Shown here: positions 7,313-60,334 of the stretch, one piece after another
Layout of the letters: each line of letters begins with the position of its first letter
How positions within the stretch are numbered: position 1 is the stretch's first letter
DNA from: Onchidella celtica
Lineage: Eukaryota > Mollusca > Gastropoda > Systellommatophora > Onchidiidae
NCBI GenBank assembly: GCA_963931925.1
Contig: OZ007579.1
Location: 38,361,566-38,425,565 of the forward strand
Direction: 5' to 3'
DNA length: 64,000 bases
Position numbers and translations under genes: made by a program
Notes under the pieces: model-generated
Told to the model about the DNA's origin: nothing
Database searches by the model: none
What the model saw: the letters and a program-made list of their open reading frames with translations, nothing else

Positions 7313-8514
7313 ATGGCGAGTATGCCTTCAACCAATGCGCCTAATGGCGGAAATCTTAACCCCAGCGGGACGGATCCGAACGAAGCTTCGCACCTTCAGC
7401 CGGGAAGAGTTAACACTTCCACGGCTTATGAGGAAGGTGCGTACGGTGGGGGCTCTTCTTTTCTGCTTGGAGACGGCGCCCCTTCTCAGTACTACAACTC
7501 CTACTACGGGTATTACGGTGACACACATCAGCATAGAGCAGTATCGGGGGCTCTTCAAGGAGATAGTGGCAGTAGCAACACTTACATTCCTAACCAGGAT
7601 GTCCACGACGGTGCTGGAACTAGTCTGTACTCCGAGGGTTTTAAACAAACCTATCCGGCTTATCAGCCAGTCAATGGTGGAATCCTCGCTACCGGAGCTC
7701 CTGATCCGGGCCCAGCCTACAGGTCCTCGCAAATTCAGGACTGCTACAACACCGGGCTACCCAGCAATGCCCCGGCATCAAATGCTGACACCGAAACTTC
7801 CACACAGCTCGGGGGTCACAGTCAGACGGCCGTCCATCCGCAAGACCACTTAGGCCAGTCAGCTTCCCATCTGCATCAGCAACAACAACAGCAGCAGCCG
7901 CCCCCACAGGGTAATGTTTACACAGAACTACAGCCGTATCAAGGCGTCTCCCTCCTGCCCGCCATACCACCCCCTCTCCCCTTTCAGACATCGTCACCAT
8001 TATGTTCCTCACCAAGCGCCGATGTTGCCGGCTATCAACATCACCACCAAATGCCTTCGACTTATGGCTCATTCAACTATGGATCCTTTCCCAGCCGCGG
8101 GACCGGCTACAGTGATACCCCAGCGTCTCCCAGCACTGCATCCCCTCACTATAGCCAAACACATTCATCGCCTAACTCCTACCTTTGGTCTCAACATGGA
8201 CCAACCCTTCCATTTGGCTCATCAAAGGGCAGACAGCCAGCTTACGGCTACAATGCTGTACAACCTTCAATTAATACTGAAGAGAACGTACCCCCTTCCT
8301 TCCACCCAACGCCTGTGATTCCTCCAGCTGTCGATTTTTCTGGAATGATGGCCAACAGGGACAGGGAGCTCTTGCGTCTTGGACGGCGCGGGAATACCGT
8401 CCCTGCCTGGACGGCTAGGGGTACCAGGAACTGCTCGGTGGTGCTCTACAATGGAGAGATGTGGTCCAGGTTTCACATCCACACCAATGAGATGATCATC
8501 ACCAAACACGGAAG
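7313..8514 (+). CDS. T-box gene exon 1 (N-terminus and start of the T-domain)
   Basis: 400 codons plus two bases. Start chosen at ATG 7313, the first ATG after the in-frame TGA at 7244; a second in-frame ATG at 7322 has the better context (A at -3). The N-terminal ~370 residues are low complexity: Tyr-rich YYNSYYGYYG, a Q7 run followed by prolines near 7880-7912, and many S/P/T/H. They are probably disordered and regulatory. The last ~30 codons start the T-domain (VVLYNGEMWSRF, then TNEMIITKHGR). The donor is GGAAG|GTAAGA, phase 2. Codon use and composition change sharply at the donor, because a pyrimidine minisatellite begins about 54 bp later. Confidence 0.95.
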
Positions 8515-8568: not shown

Positions 8569-11373
8569 CATTATCTACCGCCTCTTCCTCATCCTCCTCA
8601 TCTTTATCCTTTTCCTCCTCATCTTTATCCCCTTCCTCATCTTTATCCTCCTCCTCATCTTTATCCTCCTGCTCATCTTTATCCTCCTGCTCATCTTTAT
8701 CCTCCTGCTCATCTTTATCCCCTTCCTCATCTTTATCCCCCTGCTCATCTTTATCCTCCTGCTCATCTTTATCCTCCTGCTCATCTTTATCCTCCTGCTC
8801 ATCTTTATCCCCTTCCTCATCTTTATCCTCCTGCTCATCTTTATCCTCCTGCTCATCTTTATCCTCCTGCTCATCTTTATCCTCCTGCTCATCTTTATCC
8901 TCCTGCTCATCTTTATCCTCCTGCTCATCTTTATCCTCCTGCTCATCTTTATCCTCCTGCTCATCTTTATCCTCCTCCTCATCTTTATCCTCCTGCTCAT
9001 CTTTATCCTCCTGCTCATCTTTATCCTCCTCCTCATCTTTATCCTCCTGCTCATCTTTATCCCCTTCCTCATCTTTATCCCCTTCCTCATCTTTATCCTC
9101 CTCCTCATCTTTATCCCCTTCCTCATCTTTATCCCCTTCCTCATCTTTATCCTTTTTCCCCTCATCTTTATCCCCTTCCTCATCTTTATCCCCTTCCTCA
9201 TCTTTATCCCCTTCCTCATCTTTATCCCTTCCTCATCTTTATCCTCCTCCTCATCTTTATCCCCTTCCTCATCTTTATCCCCTTCCTCATCTTTATCCTT
9301 TTCCTCCTCATCTTTATCCTCTTCCTCATCTTTATCCTCCTGCTCATCTTTATCCTCCTGCTCATCTTTATCCTCCTGCTCATCTTTATCCTCCTGCTCA
9401 TCTTTATCCTCCTGCTCATCTTTATCCTCCTGCTCATCTTTATCCTCCTGCTCATCTTTATCCTCCTGCTCATCTTTATCCTCCTGCTCATCTTTATCCT
9501 CCTGCTCATCTTTATCCTCCTCCTCATCTTTATCCTCCTGCTCATCTTTATCCCCTTCCTCATCTTTATCCCCTTCCTCATCTTTATCCTCCTCCTCATC
9601 TTTATCCCCTTCCTCATCTTTATCCCCTTCCTCATCTTTATCCCTTCCTCATCTTTATCCTCCTCCTCATCTTTATCCCCTTCCTCATCTTTATCCCCTT
9701 CCTCATCTTTATCCTTTTCCTCCTCATCTTTATCCTCTTCCTCATCTTTATCCTCTTCCTCATCTTTATCCCCTTCCTCATCTTTATCCCCTTCCTCATC
9801 TTTATCCCCTTCCTCATCTTTATCCCCTTCCTCATCTTTATCCCCTTCCTCATCTTTATCCCCTTCCTCATCTTTATCCTCTTCCTCATCTTTATCCCCT
9901 TCCTCATCTTTATCCTCCTCCTCATCTTTATCCTCTTCCTCATCTTTATCCTCTTCCTCATCTTTATCCTCTTCCTCATCTTTATCCCCTTCCTCATCTT
10001 TATCCTTTTCCTCATCTTTATCCCCTTCCTCATCTTTATCCTCCTGCTCATCTTTATCCTCCTCCTCATCTTTATCCTCTTCCTCATCTTTATCCTCCTC
10101 CTCATCTTTATCCTCTTCCTCATCTTTATCCTCTTCCTCATCTTTATCCCCTTCCTCATCTTTATCCTCTTCCTCATCTTTATCCCCTTCCTCATCTTTA
10201 TCCTCCTGCTCATCTTTATCCTCTTCCTCATCTTTATCCTCCTCCTCATCTTTATCCTCCTGCTCATCTTTATCCCCTTCTTCATCTTTATCCCCTTCCT
10301 CATCTTTATCCCCTTCCTCATCTTTATCCTCCTGCTCATCTTTATCCTCCTCCTCATCTTTATCCTCCTGCTCATCTTTATCCCCTTCTTCATCTTTATC
10401 CCCTTCCTCATCTTTATCCTCTTCCTCATCTTTATCCCCTTCCTCATCTTTATCCTCTTCCTCATCTTTATCCTCTTCCTCATCTTTATCCTCTTCCTCA
10501 TCTTTATCCCCTTCCTCATCTTTATCCTCTTCCTCATCTTTATCCCCTTCCTCATCTTTATCCTCCTGCTCATCTTTATCCTCCTCCTCATCTTTATCCT
10601 CTTCCTCATCTTTATCCTCCTCCTCATCTTTATCCTCCTCCTCATCTTTATCCTCTTCCTCATCTTTATCCTCTTCCTCATCTTTATCCCCTTCCTCATC
10701 TTTATCCTCTTCCTCATCTTTATCCCCTTCCTCATCTTTATCCTCCTGCTCACCTTTATCCTCTTCCTCATCTTTATCCTCCTCCTCATCTTTATCCTCC
10801 TGCTCATCTTTATCCCCTTCTTCATCTTTATCCCCTTCCTCATCTTTATCCCCTTCCTCATCTTTATCCTCCTGCTCATCTTTATCCTCCTCCTCATCTT
10901 TATCCTCCTGCTCATCTTTATCCCCTTCTTCATCTTTATCCCCTTCTTCATCTTTATCCCCTTCCTCATCTTTATCCCCTTCCTCATCTTTATCCTCCTC
11001 CTCATCTTTATCCTCCTGCTCATCTTTATCCCCTTCCTCATCTTTATCCCCTTCCTCATCTTTATCCTCCTGCTCATCTTTATCCTCCTGCTCATCTTTA
11101 TCCCCTTCTTCATCTTTATCCCCTTCCTCATCTTTATCCCCTTCTTCATCTTTATCCCCTTCCTCATCTTTATCCCCTTCTTCATCTTTATCCCCTTCCT
11201 CATCTTTATCCTCCTGCTCATCTTTATCCCCTTCTTCATCTTTATCCCCTTCCTCATCTTTATCCCCTTCTTCATCTTTATCCCCTTCCTCATCTTTATC
11301 CCCTTCTTCATCTTTATCCCCTTCCTCATCTTTATCCTCCTCCTTATCTTTATCCTCCTCCTTATCTTTATAC
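8569..11373. repeat. 2.8-kb 18-bp minisatellite in intron 1
   Basis: About 155 units of 18 bp: CTCATCTTTATC followed by a variable hexamer (CTCCTG, CCCTTC, CTCTTC, CTCCTC). Some units have 17 or 21 bp. A higher-order repeat of exactly 540 bp is visible: 10201-10440 repeats at 10741-10980 with one seen change (CATC to CACC near 10752). On the minus strand it stays open as (MRKGIK/MSRRIK)n for up to 563 codons, which is expected from an 18-bp unit without stops and is not a gene. In the sense pre-mRNA it is a continuous polypyrimidine tract rich in UCUUU. Confidence 0.97.
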
Positions 11374-24872: not shown

Positions 24873-25027
24873 ACGCATGTTTCCAGTCCTACACTTCATG
24901 ATCTCTGGCCTGGAACCAGACAGATTATACAGAGTCTACGTGGACATGATCGTGGCTGACAACAGCCATTGGAAGTTCCAAGGTGGCAAATGGGTGTCTT
25001 GTGGCACTGCCGAACCTCTACCAGCGG
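24873..25027 (+). CDS. T-box gene exon 2 (core of the T-domain)
   Basis: Acceptor TTTTTCCCTCCAG|A, donor GCGG|GTGAGT. It enters in phase 2 (completing GRRMFP across the junction) and leaves in phase 1. Encodes [20 protein letters not shown], then [18 protein letters not shown] and KWVSCG, the conserved beta-strand core of the T-domain. The [10 protein letters not shown] stretch is typical of the Tbr group. It sits 16.4 kb after exon 1. Confidence 0.96.
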
Positions 25028-37239: not shown

Positions 37240-37355
37240 CTGGAGGAGTTTACCACCACCCAGACTCACCAAATACGGGAGCCCACTGGATGAAACAAGA
37301 TGTGAGTTTTGGTAAACTCAAACTGACCAACAATAAAAACTGTAAACTGAAACAG
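37240..37355 (+). CDS. T-box gene exon 3
   Basis: Acceptor CTCCTTTGTAG|C after a pyrimidine-rich stretch; donor AACAG|GTAAGT. Enters phase 1, leaves phase 0. Encodes [20 protein letters not shown] then [18 protein letters not shown]. The [12 protein letters not shown] and [11 protein letters not shown] motifs are the clearest Tbr-group signature in the gene. Confidence 0.97.
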
Positions 37356-38174: not shown

Positions 38175-38315
38175 GTGATCCTCAACTCCATGCACCGCTA
38201 CCAGCCCCGTATCCACATTGCTGAGGAGGTGGACGGGGAGGAAGGGGAGGTGCTGCTGACCCACGCCTTCCAGGACACTCAGTTTATCGCTGTCACAGCT
38301 TATCAAAATACGGAT
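38175..38315 (+). CDS. T-box gene exon 4
   Basis: Acceptor CCGTCCTCAG|G, donor ACGGAT|GTGAGT; phase 0 in and out, 47 codons. Encodes [20 protein letters not shown], an acidic loop (GEEGEV), then [16 protein letters not shown]. The [10 protein letters not shown] and FIAVTAYQN motifs are invariant T-domain features. The exon ends exactly where the alternative exon 5 choice is made. Confidence 0.97.
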
Positions 38316-39448: not shown

Positions 39449-39736
39449 CTAAGGGGCCGCGCGCACTATCCCGTTTCGCCTGCTGCACGGCGTGCAAACG
39501 CAGATTTTTGCTTGCTTGGCAAAGAGTTTACAGTGCTGCACGCCACGCTAAAGATTGCTTGCATTGAACGGATGGTTAATTTTAACATAGCACTATCCTG
39601 TTTCGCCTGCTGCACGGCGTGCAAACGCAGATTTTTGCTTGCTTGGCAAAGAGTTTACAGTGCTGCACGCCACGCGAAAGATTGTTTGCATTGAACGGAT
39701 GGTTAATTTTAAACATAGTGCGCACCGGGCCTAAGG
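39449..39736. mobile_element. MITE, family M4, with internal tandem duplication
   Basis: GGGCCGCGCGCACTAT at the left mirrors ATAGTGCGCACCGGGCC at the right; TAAG borders both ends. The inside (~125 bp, CGCCTGCTGCACGGCGTGCA ... GAACGGATGGTTAATTTTA) is present twice in tandem. A single-unit relative is at 60353-60496. Located about 300 bp before exon 5a. Confidence 0.85.
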
Positions 39737-40039: not shown

Positions 40040-40098
40040 ATAACGAATGAAAAGATAAAATATAATCCATATGCGAAAGGCATGCAAGACAAGTCTAG
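40040..40098 (+). CDS. T-box gene exon 5a: alternative exon for the end of the T-domain
   Basis: Acceptor CACTCACATTTTCAG|A, donor TCTAG|GTAACT. It enters phase 0 and leaves phase 2, exactly like exon 5b at 41779-41840. Encodes ITNEKIKYNPYAKGMQDKS plus two bases of Arg. About 11 positions match exon 5b (I-T-x-x-K-I-x-x-N-P-x-A-K-G-x-x-D). KIKYNP is the Brachyury-type version of this motif. The two Phe that 5b has in NPFAKGF are Tyr and Met here. Joining 5a to 5b would give AGA-TAA at the junction, so the two exons cannot be used together productively. Known T-domain structures place this segment in the DNA minor groove, so the variant could bind DNA differently. Confidence 0.8.
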
Positions 40099-40719
40099 GT
40101 AACTATACATTTTTGGAACCACAGAAACAGTGGACAGTGCAGAGAAATATTAGTAACAGATATCATTACATATAACATTTGTTGTTTTAATGCGGCTAAT
40201 ATTTACTAATCATTTATACAGTGGGTGATACATCTGGAGGAACGTGGACAAACTATGGCAAGAAAGTTCCTACAAATGATTTTTCTGCCCTCTCTGGCTG
40301 GGTAAATCTAGGCGCGTGCCAGCCCATGTTGATCAATCAATAAGTTGGATGGTGAGGTCAAGACATTGAGTTCTAATGTCAGGCAACTACTCGGCAGGCA
40401 CGTGAGGTTTCACCAAAGATACTAGACACGATAAGATGAGACACTCCCTTCTTCGCATACCTACAAAAATTGTGCACACGGTTAGAGCGCTGACGGGGGG
40501 GGGGGGGGGGGCAATGGCGCATTGCGTGAAAAGAATGCTTGGTATAATGGTACACTATGCGGATTTGTCACAGTGCTACTGCGACTGAAAAAAAAAAAAA
40601 AGCCAGAGTTTTCCCCTCAGCGAATGAAGTTATAATTACAAAATAAGTGACGTCAGTCAAGGCCTTCAGAGATGGCGGACAACATTTTCCCTATTTGGCT
40701 GTGCAAAATAATGCAGTGT
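40099..40719. other. intron between alternative exons; no gene seen
   Basis: A G-rich run is at 40495-40511 and a poly(A) run at 40589-40601. No further exon copy was seen. Confidence 0.4.
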
Positions 40720-40825
40720 TCATGACTTCCGCGCATTCGCCGCTAGGTGGCGGTGCGAAACCTGTGTACTCTAAACGCCCCAGTGGTCTCATCTTACCGT
40801 TTCTTGTGTCTTTGGTTTCACTAAA
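40720..40825 (-). repeat. dispersed repeat, family R3 copy
   Basis: Inverse of 11530-11625 (CATTCGCCGCTAGGTGGCGG, TGTCTTTGGTTTCACTAAAC). Confidence 0.6.
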
Positions 40826-41159
40826 CCTTCAAGTCGTGACGTCACATCTAGCCAGCCGGCTCACCAATATCGACTGATGCACTCCTAGGGGAAATGTCTA
40901 GAATGTCGAAGTTTTGGACACTTCGTTCAGCAAATTCTCTAGATGTATCACTTACTGTGACATTGTTTGCTTTATCGCACGGAGTTGTCTGAGACACGGA
41001 GTCTGGTTGGTGACGATTGGTGAAATATGATCAAATTTTCACACCAAACAAAGATAATTTTAATTTGTTTATAGTGGTTCGCAACCATAGCAACGGCGAT
41101 GGTAACAACAACATGGTTAATTACTATAACAAAAAACGAACAACAATAACAATACGAAC

Positions 41160-41183
41160 TTCAACAACAACAACAACAACAAC

Positions 41184-41238
<55 letters not shown>
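41160..41238 (+). repeat. (CAA)n then (CA)n microsatellite
   Basis: About 24 bp of CAA followed by about 50 bp of CA. It lies between the two alternative exons. Confidence 0.95.
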
Positions 41239-41454
41239 CCAGCAAAAACAACAGCGTGAGCAAAAATGCCCATAAACCACGGAAGGGCCTACTCTAGTTC
41301 ATTGTTTTGTTGTTTTTTTTTTCATCCCAAGAAATTCGGATCGGAAATTTGAAATTACCTTATTTTAAACAAAAAACTGAACGAAAAGACACAAAACAAT
41401 TAATTCATTTCGACTCAGGAGAGTTAGAGTTTTCCTTCAGTTAAAGACTGTAAA

Positions 41455-41555
41455 ATCCTGTTCGGTGGGCGGATCTTTTATGATTGCTGTTGGTTGCGAA
41501 ATTGCCCCGTAACAGTTCAAGTCTCAGGGTCACAAAAATATAGGTCCGCCGCTGG
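41455..41555. repeat. eroded GGCGGATC-type repeat fragment
   Basis: GGTGGGCGGATCTTTTATG, GCCCCGTAACAGTTCAAG and GGTCCGCCGCTGG recall 21590-21610 and 22070-22090. Confidence 0.4.
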
Positions 41556-41778
41556 TCTTGAATGTACACTCAAAAGGTTATCTCACCTTCCAAGAACCAT
41601 GGATTGAGGCCAGTTTTCTTATTCATGAACACAAATTTTTATCATAATCTCTCACCAATCTTGGCCACCAGAATTCCCGCATCTGTCAATTCTTGCAATT
41701 GTTTGTCCAAAGTCTGGCTACTAACTTACTCACCATCATTGTTTTTTGTTCCTTTCTTTTTCTTATCCAAATTTTCAG

Positions 41779-41840
41779 ATAACTCAGCTGAAAATTGACA
41801 ATAATCCCTTCGCTAAAGGATTTAGAGACAGTTTCAACAG
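41779..41840 (+). CDS. T-box gene exon 5b: standard exon for the end of the T-domain
   Basis: Acceptor ATCCAAATTTTCAG|A, donor AACAG|GTAAAA; phase 0 in, phase 2 out, 20 codons plus two bases. Encodes [20 protein letters not shown], the canonical Tbr-type end of the T-domain. The two Phe of NPFAKGF are those that enter the DNA minor groove in known T-domain structures. This is the default version by family comparison. Confidence 0.95.
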
Positions 41841-42773
41841 GTAAAAAAATAAAAAAATAAATGTTATTCACCTGTTTGAATTGTACGTATCTTTCAATAT
41901 AGTTTGGTGTTTGTTAGTAAACATATTCTTGGAATAATTTGATATATTGAACAATTGAATTCATGATAAGAGAAGGTATCTTTCCACATTTTTGGATAAT
42001 TCATAATCCTTCAAGTAAGAAATATCTTGATCGTTTAGTGCATGAGCAAAAATATTTGTAGACTTAAAAAAAAAACAAAAAAAAACAAACAAACAAAAAA
42101 CAAAAACGTTCAATTCCGTCCCTGTTTATCAGTTTACATTTTCCTCATAGAGAAATAGAACAATGTAAATAGTATACGATTTTTAGAGATGTTTTGTGTG
42201 CTAATTTTCTTCCTTTTTAACTGTCCACCATTATATTTCTTATTTGATGTTCATTCAATGGTTGTTTATGCATTTTTACCTGCACTGGGTTTTGCTGAAT
42301 ACCTGTTCAGTTGTACACTATGCCATTTTATGTACATTACCTCTAGTATTTATTGTATAGTTAGTTTGTTCCATCAAGGAAAGAAGAAAAATATACTTGA
42401 AACCATACGTGACATGCAAGACTTTAAGTGCGTAAGCAAAACATATGGGACATTTGGGACCTTAAATGTATATGGCCAAAAACTATGCCGGGAATAATTC
42501 TAACATGTGAACTGATGACATTCAAATTCCACTGCTCTTCAGTGGAGAGAACAGGTTAGACACTGTTTATTTGGTCTAGTTACTGACGCCGAGTTGGCAA
42601 TTGCTTTGTTTCAGTGCCTGTTAACAATAATTTGGATGTTGTGCCAAAGTATGATAATATTACTTGCTACGCGTGGACTGTGTTTTGTATTGATGTTTGC
42701 AACACAATCAACCAGCTATTGTTTTTTTTTTCACTGACGTCACTAATACTTGTGTAATTACCATGCTTGAATA
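41841..42773. other. intron 5 DNA; no gene seen
   Basis: AT-rich. The 102-codon open frame at 42189-42497 has no splice or family support and is rejected. Confidence 0.4.
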
Positions 42774-45322: not shown

Positions 45323-45878
45323 ATGATGTATGTTCCGAAGTAGAACGTTTTCCTGCAGTCATTTAGGAACGAATATGAAATCTACTGTAGGCAGATAAAT
45401 TAGTCAGTAAAACATGTGCGAAAGAAGTGCCAATACAAGTAAGTCCATCCTCTTAGGCATACAGAGCGCAGAACAATCAGTCAGACACCGTTTTCAAATA
45501 CACAACATTATACCAGTGCTAGCAAAGGAGCGATTTTTACGTCATATGACCAAGTTTGAGTTTGTTTATGCAATGAATTGTTTCGACAGTTTTAGGTTTT
45601 GGCCTCGGACCACGTTTAAGTTACCAACAACAACATTTTCCTTGGCGACAAAGCTACAATAACTTCATTTCAGAAACTGGCAGCAAATTGGCAATAACAT
45701 CCTTTAGTGAATTTATTGGCTGCATAGCTCAAAATTAATAGCCTCAAAAAACTTGAAGAAAAACACAAGAAAAGAAAGTGGGGGGGGGGGGGGGAGCAGT
45801 TTGGCAAACCCAGGACACTTTGTAATTGGCAGTGACACTACCATGCACTTACGAGTCATCATTTGTTCAATTCACCAG
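45323..45878. other. end of intron 5; no gene seen
   Basis: A G-rich run is at 45780-45796, about 85 bp before the exon 6 acceptor. Confidence 0.4.
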
Positions 45879-45881
45879 CAG

Positions 45882-46145
45882 ACTGGGCTATACCGATTCA
45901 CCTAACCCTGAAGGGTCTCAGTCTCCGGCCCCCATGTACGCTCCTGCCATCCACAATCCAGATGCGATGAACGCCGGCACCCATCCCTACAACTACGGCT
46001 ACGTACAACCAATGTTGCCAGCTGCTCCAGGAGCGGCTCGAGTCTCCCCAGCAACAAAGACACCGACATCTCTTGGCCCTGGTTACTTTTCTGCTCCACC
46101 GGCGGCTGGTTCTCTGCTTGCTGGCAGTCCTAATTTGTTTCAAAG
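45882..46145 (+). CDS. T-box gene exon 6
   Basis: Enters phase 2, leaves phase 2 at CAAAG|GTAGGA. The acceptor is a tandem CAGCAG: splicing after the first AG (exon from 45879) inserts one extra Ser before RLGYTDSP; after the second AG (45882) gives RLGYTDSP directly. Encodes a Pro/Ser/Ala/Tyr-rich segment after the T-domain (PNPEGSQSPAPMYAPAI, then YNYGYVQPMLPAAPG). No known domain. Confidence 0.9.
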
Positions 46146-46469: not shown

Positions 46470-48432
46470 GAGCTGTGGAAATCCATACTCTGATGCAGAA
46501 TATCAACAACAGAATTTTCTAGAGCATTCGGCGTCCCATCGTCAGATTGGACCATCAGCTCATTCTCTGCCAGTGACGCCCTCCACAAATCAACAGTCTC
46601 ATTTTTATGACCCTCAGCAAGGGGCGGGTTTAGGGACAAGTTCAGAAAGCCAGGCCCTTTTCCTTAAAAGGGCTGCCAACACAACAACTGAAACATTTGA
46701 TAAACAAATCTTTCAACAAGATTACAACAGAACAGATTCATTTGGCATTGCCCAGGCTCCTGTGTACAGCCAGGAACAAGAAACATCAGATTTGCAGAAT
46801 GTCCCAGGCGAAAGTTACAGAAATAGCGCCGCAACTTTCCAGCCTCTTTCCGTTACACAAGTATCTCACCACGACGCGGCCACTTACAATTATAATAAGA
46901 ATCCTGCCCTTGCTGGATCTTGCTCGGTGACAACATCACGCCACATTAGAGAAGCTGAGGTCAGTGAGAACAAAGCAAACTTTATTTTCCCCCCAAATCC
47001 TCAAATAGAAATGACACCTCAGACAGCTGAACAATCTGCTGTTCCAGGCACTTCTTTCAGCAAATTTGAAAGATCCTCACCTGCCATGTTTTCACTTTTC
47101 TCTACACCAAAACTGGAACCAGGGAAAAAAGCTGATCAAAATTTGCCAGCCGAGAAAGTCACATTTTCTAATTGTCCCCAAACTTCCCTCACCATGTCAT
47201 ACAGGAATTCCCCGACCTGTACTCAGAGTAACCCATCAAATAACACAGCGAATTCCATACACTCTCCGTTTGCTTTAATTTCTTCAAATCCAGCATTTGG
47301 AAAAGATAGCTGCTCCACTCTGATAGACGAAAGAGTAAGTACAAACTCCCCTTTGGGGAGTCCTGTTAACTTTGTGAATGCCCCAGCGTTGATGACAGGT
47401 CGGCATCAAGCAGAGGAGCAGTCTGGACAGCGGCAGCGGTGTCATCCTTACAAAGGTCATCACCAAGAGCAGCAACAGTCGCTGTCCGCCGTGTACCACA
47501 CTAACCCCGGGTCAGCTCCCACCACTCGCACATCTCCATCTCTTGCCATGCCCGGGCACCAGACCCTGCCACAGGTAGCCAGTCTTGTGCAAGCTGCAAG
47601 TCACCCCCAGTGTCGCACTGAACGGGAATGCGAGGCGGCCAGAGAGTTCGGGAAACTACAAAGAGAAGCTGCAGAATTATCTCTCGATTTCATGTCTAAA
47701 GACGTTTCTTTGAATGCTGCCAACGGCAACTGTGGGGAGACCAGACAAAACTCTCACAATCCAATATATCTACCGACTACAGTGACTGAAACCTGCAGGA
47801 GTACCCCAACACAACCAATCGCGAACACAGGACAAGCGAGCTCAGGCATCAACAGTCAGTTACAGAACCGTGTCATTAATACAGAACTCGTTGGTAGCAT
47901 CCAGCAGATTGGGGACCAGGCGGGATACAATAACAGAAAAGTACAGCCGTGGTCAAACAATGGCGAACTAAAGCTTAGGTCTCCTCAGCAGTTGGATGAC
48001 CATCACCTCGCACAGGTCCAGGGTCAGCAGCTGAGCCAAAGTCCATCCTCTAGTACCAACAGTTCGCTGGCAGTATCCACAGACTCCAGTCGCCAAATTC
48101 AGGGCAGTGTTGACCCAGTTAAAACGATGAGGCGAAAAATCAGTGCACAAAAATCTCCATTCATTGATCGTCCCAGCGTCAAGAAATCCAGGTCTCTTGC
48201 AGCTCTCTCATTGAGCCAGACACAGGACAGTGGTAACCATCCGCCTGGACGTGAGCAGTGGACACTGGAGTCTCACCTCCCCGGTTCAGCCAAAGCAACA
48301 GCTGCAAAGAGAACCCAGATGTCTGGAGGAGCCACCATCCACAGCAACGGCCCAGCTCACAAATTCCCGTACACAGCCACCGGACAGGACAACCAATTCA
48401 TAGACAACAATAACAAAAACGCTGAAATCTGA
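46470..48432 (+). CDS. T-box gene exon 7 (long C-terminal region)
   Basis: Acceptor CTCTTGTCTGTAG|G, phase 2 in; ends at TGA 48430-48432. About 654 residues, rich in Ser, Gln, Asn, Thr and Pro, with no recognised domain. A charged, helix-prone stretch (CRTERECEAAREFGKLQREA) lies near 47615-47680. A basic stretch (KTMRRKISAQKSP and VKKSRSLAALSLS) near 48120-48215 could be a nuclear localisation signal. It recalls, weakly, the basic Ser/Pro motif near the C-terminus of vertebrate Tbr proteins. Probably a disordered transactivation region. Confidence 0.95.
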
Positions 48433-49374: not shown

Positions 49375-49830
49375 TCACTGATCCCATAACCCGCCGGGGT
49401 CGTAGGGGCGCTGCAGTGATGAACGTTGCACCAGCTGGCTCCATTTGTGGCGGTTGTGGGCGAGTGTCTGGGTTGCAGGAAAGCTCATCTTGGTCCATTC
49501 CGCAATGTTATCTGCCCATTTCTTCCTCGGTCTGCCTCGTCTTCTCTTCCCCGGCACTGTTCCTTGTAGTATGGTCTTAGAGAGCCCATCTGATCTTGTC
49601 ACATGCCCATACCATCTGAGCTTCCTTTTCTTGACTGTGGTCAGCAGGTCTTCATAGTGCCTTATTTGTCGGGTGATAGTTTGTCGGACTTCTTCGTTGG
49701 TAATGTGGTCCGTGTATGAGATGCCAAGAAGTCTTCTGAGGCATCTGATTTCCACTGCCTGGATCTTCCTTTGTAGCTCTGCATTCAGTGTCCAGGATTC
49801 GCATGCATACAGGAAGATGGTGTACTGTTG
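49375..49830 (-). pseudogene. LINE reverse-transcriptase C-terminal fragment (best preserved copy)
   Basis: The minus strand stays open for about 126 codons: MEIRCLRRLLGISYTDHITN, then YEDLLTTVKKRKLRWYGHVT, SDGLSKTILQGTVPGKRRRG and RPRKKWADNIAEW. This is the C-terminal tail of a non-LTR retrotransposon polyprotein, same family as 25390-25762. The N-terminal endonuclease and reverse-transcriptase core are missing (5' truncation). Confidence 0.88.
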
Positions 49831-49844
49831 GTATATTTGGCATT

Positions 49845-49955
49845 CTATACCGAGTCAAAATGCGGCAAAAAGAAAAGGTGGTGTGTTGTAAAGCCTTGAG
49901 GAATAAATAAGGCAGAAAAGATACGATAAAATAACATAGGAAAATGAAAGTCCAA
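49845..49955 (+). repeat. dispersed repeat, family R1 copy
   Basis: GAGTCAAAATGCGGCAAAAA, GTGTGTTGTAAAGCC and GAGGAATAAATAAGG match the R1 family. It abuts the LINE fragment. Confidence 0.6.
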
Positions 49956-59222: not shown

Positions 59223-59995
59223 GCTGCACTTGAATGATAACAATGACCTAACCATTTCATGAGGAACAGTGGGGGATGGATGAAAATCTCGATTTTCTAA
59301 TAAAACAGTCATTTCCCAGCCATCCATAAACATCACCTTGTTTTCCAAACCTTTGAAGATTTTCTTGATCACTTCTATCAGAAAGATTCCTAAGCTGTCG
59401 CCTCCTATCGTATGATTATCCGACCAGCCATCAAACGCCACATGGGGACCTCTGAAAGCTAATGTGACATTGGGATTTCTCTTAAGAAGGCGGACCATGG
59501 CACCACGGACTGCTACCAACAGGTCATAAACAACGCTTAAATGCGAAGTAACTATGTGAAGGTAGTGGTGAACGATAACAATATGTTTCCCATTTGATGG
59601 TATGGAATCGATTTGTTTAGCCACACCTCCGTTTGGTAATCGATCTACCCAATGGCCACGTAAATACAGTGGGTATTCTAAATGCGAAAAATTGATAACG
59701 AGATTTTGGTTCGTGTTAATGCATGCAGCTTTATAGGGCAAAGCCGCGTGTATTTTGACTTCACAGAGCAAATTATTCAGAAAGACGTTATAAAGACGAC
59801 GACCATTAGAATCTCCAAAGATCCACACTTGGGTGTTCCTCAGACATGCGGCTCCCCATTCAGGGGTCAGGTGAGGTCTCCGGCACTGTAATGACACCCA
59901 CTGGCTTCCGTTCCAGTAACCGCTAGGCCCTTTTTCAGTGTCCCACGTGATGCTGAAACTTAGGTCACGACAGGGAGGTAATTCTCTGCGTTTTC
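59220..59995 (-). CDS. NXPE-family PC-esterase-domain protein, last exon
   Basis: Acceptor TATTTTTGCAG|G (exon starts at 59995) and stop TAA at 59220-59222; about 257 codons. Encodes RRELPPCRDLSFSITWD, then GPSGYWNGSQWVSLQC, CLRNTQVWIFGDSNGRRLYN, a central RGAMVRLLKRNPNVTLAFRG, and a final FMDGWEMTVLLENRDFHPSP. These are the LPPC, PSGYW, FGDS (Ser codon 59808-59810), RLL.R.P and D.WEMT..HP motifs of the PC-esterase domain of NXPE (neurexophilin and PC-esterase domain) proteins. Members are usually secreted or type II membrane proteins; the substrate in invertebrates is unknown. The gene is convergent with the T-box gene. Confidence 0.85.
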
Positions 59996-60296
59996 CTGCA
60001 AAAATAGATTCAGATCATCAGGGCAATATTGTGAGCTTCATATTTTTCCTAAGCTGTGCTGTAAATACATGTATTTACAACCCTCAATTAAAATGTTTAA
60101 TGCAAAAAGAAAAGGCAAATTAATGGAGGAAAAAAAAAATTAAAACGAAAGAGAAACGTTCTATGAGCCCTACCGTCAAATTGTACTCACAATAGGCTTT
60201 TATGTGAACTTTGTTGTCCGCGTTAAGAACATTACAGCCGCCAGTCCAAACTCATCTCATTCTAAGACAAACAAACAGAGTGGAGAGGCGGGAAGG

Positions 60297-60334
60297 GGTA
60301 GAGCGCGCGCGCGCGCACACACACACACACACGC
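60297..60334 (+). repeat. (GC)n and (CA)n microsatellite
   Basis: GCGCGCGCGCGC followed by ACACACACACAC, in the last intron of the NXPE-like gene. Confidence 0.9.

What the first reader, a model, noticed from the sequence alone, without database searches (positions are those of the whole stretch)
40040..41840. Mutually exclusive exon pair switches the DNA-contacting end of a T-brain T-domain
Exons 5a (40040-40098) and 5b (41779-41840) are diverged versions of one exon: same entry phase (0), same exit phase (2), both with good splice sites, and about 11 matching residues. 5b has the canonical KID..NPFAKGF. 5a has the Brachyury-like KIKYNP, followed by YAKGM, replacing both Phe residues that enter the DNA minor groove in known T-domain structures. 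One gene could therefore make two T-box factors with different DNA-binding or partner properties. I do not know of this switch being described for Tbr-group genes.
Basis: partly seen in the sequence, partly recalled or inferred. Interest (0 to 1): 0.93.

Follow-up and report, generated by a model that had tools for sequence, protein, structure and literature searches.

The report
Splice-swapped DNA wedge in T-brain gene
A developmental control gene carries two alternative copies of the tiny exon that plugs the protein into DNA, and the second copy changes both key contact residues, so one gene could make two differently binding proteins; this rests on genome sequence only and still needs RNA proof.

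Summary
Exon 5a (40040-40098) and exon 5b (41779-41840) are homologous exons in one intron of a seven-exon T-brain-group gene. Both enter in phase 0 and leave in phase 2, and match at 10 of 17 ungapped residues plus a split Arg. A chance origin of 5a has P about 3e-6. No other AG..GT pair 30-150 nt apart in that intron has two sites as good (0 of 2,879). Either exon alone gives about 1,300 residues; both together give a stop at the junction; skipping both gives a stop after seven shifted codons. In ten canonical T-box segments of this genome eight positions never vary. 5a keeps six and changes exactly the two Phe whose brachyury counterparts enter the minor groove (to Tyr and Met). The codon pattern does not fit simple decay. 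'Brachyury-like' is not an origin: 5a is no closer to this genome's Brachyury than to 5b. Best reading: a mutually exclusive exon pair that retunes or weakens the minor-groove wedge, working like FOXP1/FOXP1-ES. No RNA and no second species could be examined, so usage and binding remain inferred.

The parts
7313..8514 (+). Exon 1 coding part (first Met taken at 7313, reading MASMPST...; start not verified); N-terminal region and first part of the T-domain, ending ..ITKHGR, donor AAG|gtaaga
24873..25027 (+). Exon 2, T-domain [16 protein letters not shown]
37240..37355 (+). Exon 3, T-domain [23 protein letters not shown]
38175..38315 (+). Exon 4, T-domain [18 protein letters not shown], leaves in phase 0
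40040..40098 (+). Exon 5a: variant C-terminal DNA-contacting segment, 59 nt, ITNEKIKYNPYAKGMQDKS(R), phase 0 to 2
   Evidence: only match found in the genome
41779..41840 (+). Exon 5b: canonical segment, 62 nt, [20 protein letters not shown](R), phase 0 to 2
45882..46145 (+). Exon 6, RLGYTDSPN.., enters in phase 2; NAGNAG acceptor (alternative start 45879)
46470..48432 (+). Exon 7, long C-terminal coding exon (end includes the stop codon)

Best explanation
This is a pair of mutually exclusive, tandem-duplicated exons in a T-brain-group T-box gene. Shown from sequence: the exon runs from phase 0 to phase 2, so a second copy cannot be added to the first. 5a alone or 5b alone gives a full-length protein, both together give a stop exactly at the 5a/5b junction, and skipping both gives a stop after seven shifted codons. 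Inferred: the cell picks one exon, helped by donors weaker than those of the other exons of the gene, and mis-spliced products are removed by nonsense-mediated decay. Inferred: 5b makes the standard T-domain. 5a makes a protein of the same fold with the Lys between the two Phe kept, but with Tyr and Met in place of the two minor-groove Phe and Gln in place of the following Arg. The 5a isoform therefore probably meets T-box sites with changed affinity or sequence preference, and may compete with or modulate the 5b isoform. The confidence given is for the exclusive splicing of two translated isoforms; the direction of the binding change is split with the second rival below, which shares that splicing step.
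For: Homology far above chance. Only two exon-like pairs in the intron meet their own thresholds. Frame lock shown by joining exons: isoform A 1,299 aa, isoform B 1,300 aa, double inclusion 558 aa, skipping 545 aa. Codon pattern: 9 of 34 first and second positions differ against 11 of 17 third positions (Fisher P 0.014). Neutral decay from 5b, matched to the third-position divergence, gives 10 or more retained residues with P 0.0034 or 0.0002 (change on the 5a branch only). Of eight positions invariant over ten canonical segments (5b plus nine other T-box genes), 5a keeps six and changes exactly the two Phe. Brachyury F213 and F217 insert into the minor groove (PMC11828899, passages). Nematode T-box proteins whose DNA-contacting residues differ have novel motifs (PMC4434323, section 12). 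The mutually exclusive FOXP1 exons 18/18b change DNA motif (PMC11701043, passages).
Against: No RNA evidence and no second species. 5a has a clearly non-conservative change outside the wedge (Glu where the ten canonical segments have Leu or Met), which could weaken the fold. Its donor is the weakest of seven scored in the gene (7.62; 5b 7.73; others 7.87 to 12.87). 5a is the faster-changing copy: 25 to 34 of 51 bases shared with eight paralogues, against 31 to 41 for 5b. The Pfam T-box score drops from 240.6 to 226.9 bits when 5a replaces 5b. The constraint test uses only 17 codons and an assumed 5b-like ancestor, and its weakest figure is P 0.014.
Confidence: 0.7

Rival explanations
1. 5a is a relic: an old duplicate of exon 5 that is no longer, or hardly ever, spliced in.
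For: Faster change than 5b, weakest donor in the gene, both conserved Phe lost, Leu to Glu change. No RNA was available to show use.
Against: Open frame, exact phases, both splice sites intact and better than nearly all others in the intron. Six of eight invariant residues kept. Neutral decay matched to third-position divergence has P 0.014 to 0.0002 depending on measure and model. A recent loss of use after a long functional life is not excluded.
Confidence: 0.17
2. The 5a isoform is made by the same exclusive splicing but does not bind T-box sites usefully: it is a non-binding or dominant-negative form that keeps dimer or partner contacts, so the switch is on/off rather than a change of specificity. 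This overlaps with the best explanation up to the binding step.
For: Both base-contacting Phe are lost. The next residue is Gln where nine of ten canonical segments have Arg; by alignment this is the place of TBX5 R237 (inferred), and R237Q is said to disrupt synergy with Nkx2.5 and GATA4 (PMC3163680, passages). TBR1 K389E, in this segment by recalled numbering, abolishes some partner contacts and mislocalises wild-type protein (PMC10117376 and PMC6155134, passages).
Against: Tyr and Met are bulky and could still fill the groove. The Lys whose TBR1 counterpart is modelled to touch the backbone is kept (mapping recalled). TBR1 T-box variants, K389E included, kept repression of a Fezf2 element (PMC6155134). 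R237Q kept synergy with myocardin (PMC3163680).
Confidence: 0.3
3. 5a is a poison or decoy exon: its main effect is to be included together with 5b, giving a truncated 558-residue product and decay of the message, and so to set gene dosage.
For: Joining 5a to 5b gives an immediate stop; poison exons are a known kind of dosage control (recalled).
Against: Any duplicate of a phase 0-to-2 exon would do this, without needing to keep a T-box-like peptide; the coding pattern argues for a translated product.
Confidence: 0.1

Closest known systems
[quoted passage not shown] PMC11701043, passages)
   Same: One of two alternative exons encodes part of the DNA-binding domain; frame is kept; key residues change. 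There the DNA motif is reported to change.
   Different: Forkhead domain, major-groove recognition helix (recalled), mammalian; RNA and microarray data exist. Here a T-domain, minor-groove wedge, sequence evidence only.
TBX3 / TBX3+2a (PMC7044113, passages)
   Same: T-box gene whose splice forms differ inside the DNA-binding domain.
   Different: An extra exon inserts 20 residues; it is described as an insertion, not as a swap of two homologous exons.
Mouse Eomes splice forms (PMC9483813, passages)
   Same: Tbr-group gene with splice isoforms.
   Different: The forms differ in an exon 6 variant region or lose the C-terminal domain; no homologous exon pair was seen in the 12 of 32 passages shown.
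Human tandem duplicated exon substitution events (PMC9741552, passages)
   Same: Homologous neighbouring exons, one used at a time, mostly ancient.
   Different: The main text holds none of the terms TBX, DNA-binding, transcription factor or FOXP1; [quoted passage not shown]
COE/EBF duplicated helix exon (PMC2394523, abstract and outline)
   Same: Tandem exon duplication inside a transcription-factor domain.
   Different: In vertebrates inclusion of the duplicate is mandatory; the motif is a helix-loop-helix tied to dimerisation, not the DNA wedge.
Sea star, sea urchin Tbr and mouse Eomes secondary motifs (PMC4166925, passages)
   Same: Tbr-group binding preference shown to be evolvable.
   Different: There the difference lies between orthologues; here it would lie between two isoforms of one gene.

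Membership tests
T-box family | Whole T-domain matching Pfam PF00907 | tested here: met
   Isoform A 226.9 bits, isoform B 240.6 bits, cut-off 26, profile 2-182 of 182
T-brain group (Tbr1/Eomes/Tbx21) | T-domain groups with Tbr-group members, not with Brachyury or other T-box types | tested here: met
   Groups with TBX21 at 95/95 among 13 rows; TBX21 was the only Tbr-group reference used, and one paralogue (C1, 49.03 Mb) and the TBX1 and TBX3 chains were not in the tree; best PDB match TBX21, 245 bits against 210.4 for Xbra
Mutually exclusive tandem exon pair | Neighbouring exons with homologous sequence | tested here: met
   10 of 17 residues, chance P about 2.6e-6
Mutually exclusive tandem exon pair | Same entry and exit phases, usable splice sites on both | tested here: met
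   Phase 0 to 2 for both; site ranks
Mutually exclusive tandem exon pair | Double inclusion and double skipping break the frame | tested here: met
   558 aa and 545 aa truncated products against 1,299 and 1,300 aa
Mutually exclusive tandem exon pair | Both exons found in mature RNA, one at a time | not testable with these tools
   No RNA data on hand
Mutually exclusive tandem exon pair | Both exons conserved between species | not testable with these tools
   The tool states that this genome has no relatives here; the other collections are described as prokaryotic, viral, plasmid or metagenomic and were not searched
FOXP1-ES-like DNA-binding switch | Alternative exon changes DNA-contacting residues | tested here: met
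   Residues aligned to brachyury F213 and F217 become Tyr and Met (numbering placed by alignment and spacing)
FOXP1-ES-like DNA-binding switch | The two isoforms prefer different DNA motifs | not testable with these tools
   Needs a binding assay

The most novel reading that the evidence does not exclude
A T-brain gene uses a frame-locked pair of exons to swap the two minor-groove Phe, which are unvarying in the ten canonical T-box segments compared in this genome, for Tyr and Met, giving a second T-box factor with its own DNA preference from the same gene. It would be a splice switch of the T-box minor-groove wedge, kept by selection in its lineage.
Probability: 0.4. Interest if true: 0.82.

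Novelty: new variant of a known kind. Interest (0 to 1): 0.64.

Why it matters
T-box factors are described as recognising nearly the same core site across animals, and how target specificity arises is said to be unclear (PMC4434323 and PMC11828899, passages). A natural pair of isoforms that differ only in the DNA wedge would be a clean test of what the two Phe contribute, and would show that one T-box gene can change its own target choice by splicing rather than by gene duplication.

Tried and rejected
Origin of 5a from Brachyury: not supported; 5a shares 10 of 17 residues with 5b, with this genome's Brachyury and with four other T-box genes alike, although among PDB chains human brachyury scores slightly best. 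5a as a repeat or transposon piece: not supported; its 141-base surroundings match only themselves, and the peptide's one match is itself (both searches score only the best candidates of a first look). Duplicate exon 5 in other T-box genes: none seen in the loci scanned, which are limited stretches around each gene. A third copy in intron 4: the next score, 21.4 at 41981, is within the simulated range. A possible 11th T-box gene on C8 (only an N-terminal exon seen, L028) was not followed. Regulatory motifs: one TGCATG (42039, about 200 bases after 5b) and three GCATG, one inside 5a (40080); no chance estimate was made, and I draw nothing from them. RNA pairing between the introns was not tested.

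Paper searches bearing on novelty were (open-licence library only; listings seen: 4 of 4, 20 of 28, 10 of 564, 4 of 4, 15 of 210 and 20 of 86 papers). No listed title or abstract start reports a homologous exon swap in a T-box gene. [quoted passage not shown] An oyster survey of transcription-factor splicing mentions mutually exclusive exons but has neither 'T-box' nor 'Tbx' in its main text (PMC12111275, passages). The other four searches were for structure, variants and analogues.

Full report
What is there. A single gene on the + strand runs from about 7313 to 48432. Reading its exons (8514 donor; 24873-25027; 37240-37355; 38175-38315; 5a or 5b; 45882-46145; 46470 on) gives one open frame of 1,299 residues with exon 5a (40040-40098) or 1,300 with exon 5b (41779-41840). 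The start codon is taken, not proved, and no transcript supports the model. The T-domain matches Pfam T-box over its whole length with either exon.

Which gene. The best solved relative is TBX21, 245 bits, ahead of Xenopus Brachyury at 210.4. In a tree of 13 T-domains (the window gene, four PDB chains and eight paralogues) the window gene groups with TBX21 at 95/95. This genome's own Brachyury is another gene on C4 and groups with vertebrate Brachyury at 98/96. Only 3 of 10 inner branches were well supported in all, two paralogue rows are very long, some rows are partial, and one paralogue (C1, 49.03 Mb) was left out. TBX21 was the only Tbr-group reference, so 'T-brain group' is supported but rests on this one comparison.

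Are both exons real? Scanning intron 4 with a profile of five T-box segments (one identical to 5b over 17 residues, none of them 5a) gives 74.0 for 5b, 48.8 for 5a and 21.4 for the next best. The highest of 4,000 simulated introns was 37.2, and the fitted P for 48.8 is 2.6e-6. With recalled splice weights, no other AG..GT pair of 30-150 nt in the intron (0 of 2,879) has both sites at least as good as the weaker of the two exons; both exons are open and run phase 0 to 2. The peptide and the DNA around 5a found only themselves in the genome.

Exclusivity. In six of six paralogues whose separate exon 5 was measured, the exon starts at a codon boundary and the best-scoring donor leaves it in phase 2 (donors were picked by score, without transcripts), so the phase appears to be an old feature and the pair inherits a built-in lock. 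Joining 5a to 5b gives AGA TAA, a stop at the junction (558 residues); skipping both gives a stop after seven shifted codons (545 residues). The donors of 5a (gtaact) and 5b (gtaaaa) both lack G at +5, while the other five scored donors of this gene have it; the six paralogue donors have it too, but they were chosen as the best-scoring GT, which favours that. Weak paired donors fit regulated choice, but this is inference.

What changes in the protein. Ten canonical segments were compared: 5b and the segments of nine other T-box genes. Positions 2, 5, 6, 9, 10, 11, 12 and 15 never vary. 5a keeps T, K, I, N, P and A and changes exactly the two Phe, to Tyr and Met. [quoted passage not shown] The main-chain bond could survive in 5a; the side-chain packing must differ. 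5a also has Lys and Tyr where 5b has Asp and Asn, Gln for the Arg after the second Phe, Glu where the ten canonical segments have Leu or Met, and one residue fewer. The Lys between the two Phe is kept; [quoted passage not shown] Against an easy reading, the whole-domain Pfam score falls by 13.7 bits with 5a.

Selection. 5a and 5b differ at 11 of 17 third positions but only 9 of 34 first and second positions (Fisher P 0.014). Simulated neutral decay of 5a from a 5b-like ancestor, kept only when it reproduces 11 third-position differences, gives 9 or fewer first/second differences with P 0.014 and 10 or more kept residues with P 0.0034 (4,110 of 30,000 runs kept). With change on the 5a branch alone these are 0.0019 and 0.0002 (25,982 of 200,000 kept). 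So 5a does not look simply decayed, though it has changed faster than 5b: it shares 25-34 of 51 bases with the eight paralogues tabulated, against 31-41 for 5b (the ninth, on C4 at 36.4 Mb, was compared by peptide only). Seventeen codons, a flat prior on time and an assumed ancestor are a thin base, and a recent loss of function cannot be excluded.

How it probably works. One exon is chosen per message; frame and decay remove the rest; 5b makes the standard factor, 5a a factor with an altered wedge. Altered contacting residues can plausibly change motif (nematode TBX-33, -39 and -40 have novel motifs and different contacting residues, PMC4434323, section 12) or lower binding. Tbr-group proteins are known to differ in secondary motifs (PMC4166925, passages). 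Point variants in this region are mixed: TBX5 R237Q is said to disrupt synergy with Nkx2.5 and GATA4 but kept it with myocardin (PMC3163680, passages); TBR1 K389E lost several partner contacts, kept others, and kept repression of one element (PMC10117376 and PMC6155134, passages). A change in partner choice, or loss of binding, is therefore a real alternative.

Against what is known. The closest working analogue is FOXP1/FOXP1-ES, a mutually exclusive exon swap reported to change the DNA motif (PMC11701043, passages). T-box genes are known to splice inside the DNA-binding domain (TBX3+2a, a 20-residue insertion, PMC7044113, passages), and mouse Eomes has isoforms that differ in exon 6 or lack the C-terminal domain (PMC9483813, passages). 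In the six searches that bear on novelty (partial listings, open-licence library) I saw no report of a homologous exon swap in a T-box gene; one directly relevant review is not held. Verdict: a new variant of a known kind, well founded as sequence, unproved as RNA and as binding.

Noticed in passing
45876-45884: Exon 6 has a NAGNAG acceptor (ccagcag), so isoforms may differ by one residue directly after exon 5.
   Followed up: partly
8595-11371: An 18-base tandem array of about 154 copies (TCCTCATCTTTATCCTCT) begins about 80 bases after the exon 1 donor.
   Followed up: partly
59223-60014 (- strand): Open frame matching NXPE family member 4-like C-terminal domain, E 8e-40; probably part of the neighbouring gene.
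   Followed up: partly
49378-49854 (- strand): Open frame that looks like the tail of a non-LTR retrotransposon reverse transcriptase (from memory); no Pfam match at E 0.001.
   Followed up: partly
39460-39720 and near 60302: A roughly 125-base unit occurs twice in tandem upstream of exon 5a, with similar sequence again near 60302; looks like a dispersed repeat (seen by eye).
   Followed up: no
L028 (G000:C8:48903000-48909000): A lone T-box N-terminal exon ([24 protein letters not shown]) on another contig, with no other T-box exon listed there.
   Followed up: no
G000:C10:45.70-46.13 Mb: Three T-box genes that group together at 94/95 (Tbx2/3-like, class named from memory) lie within about 0.42 Mb, a local tandem expansion.
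   Followed up: no
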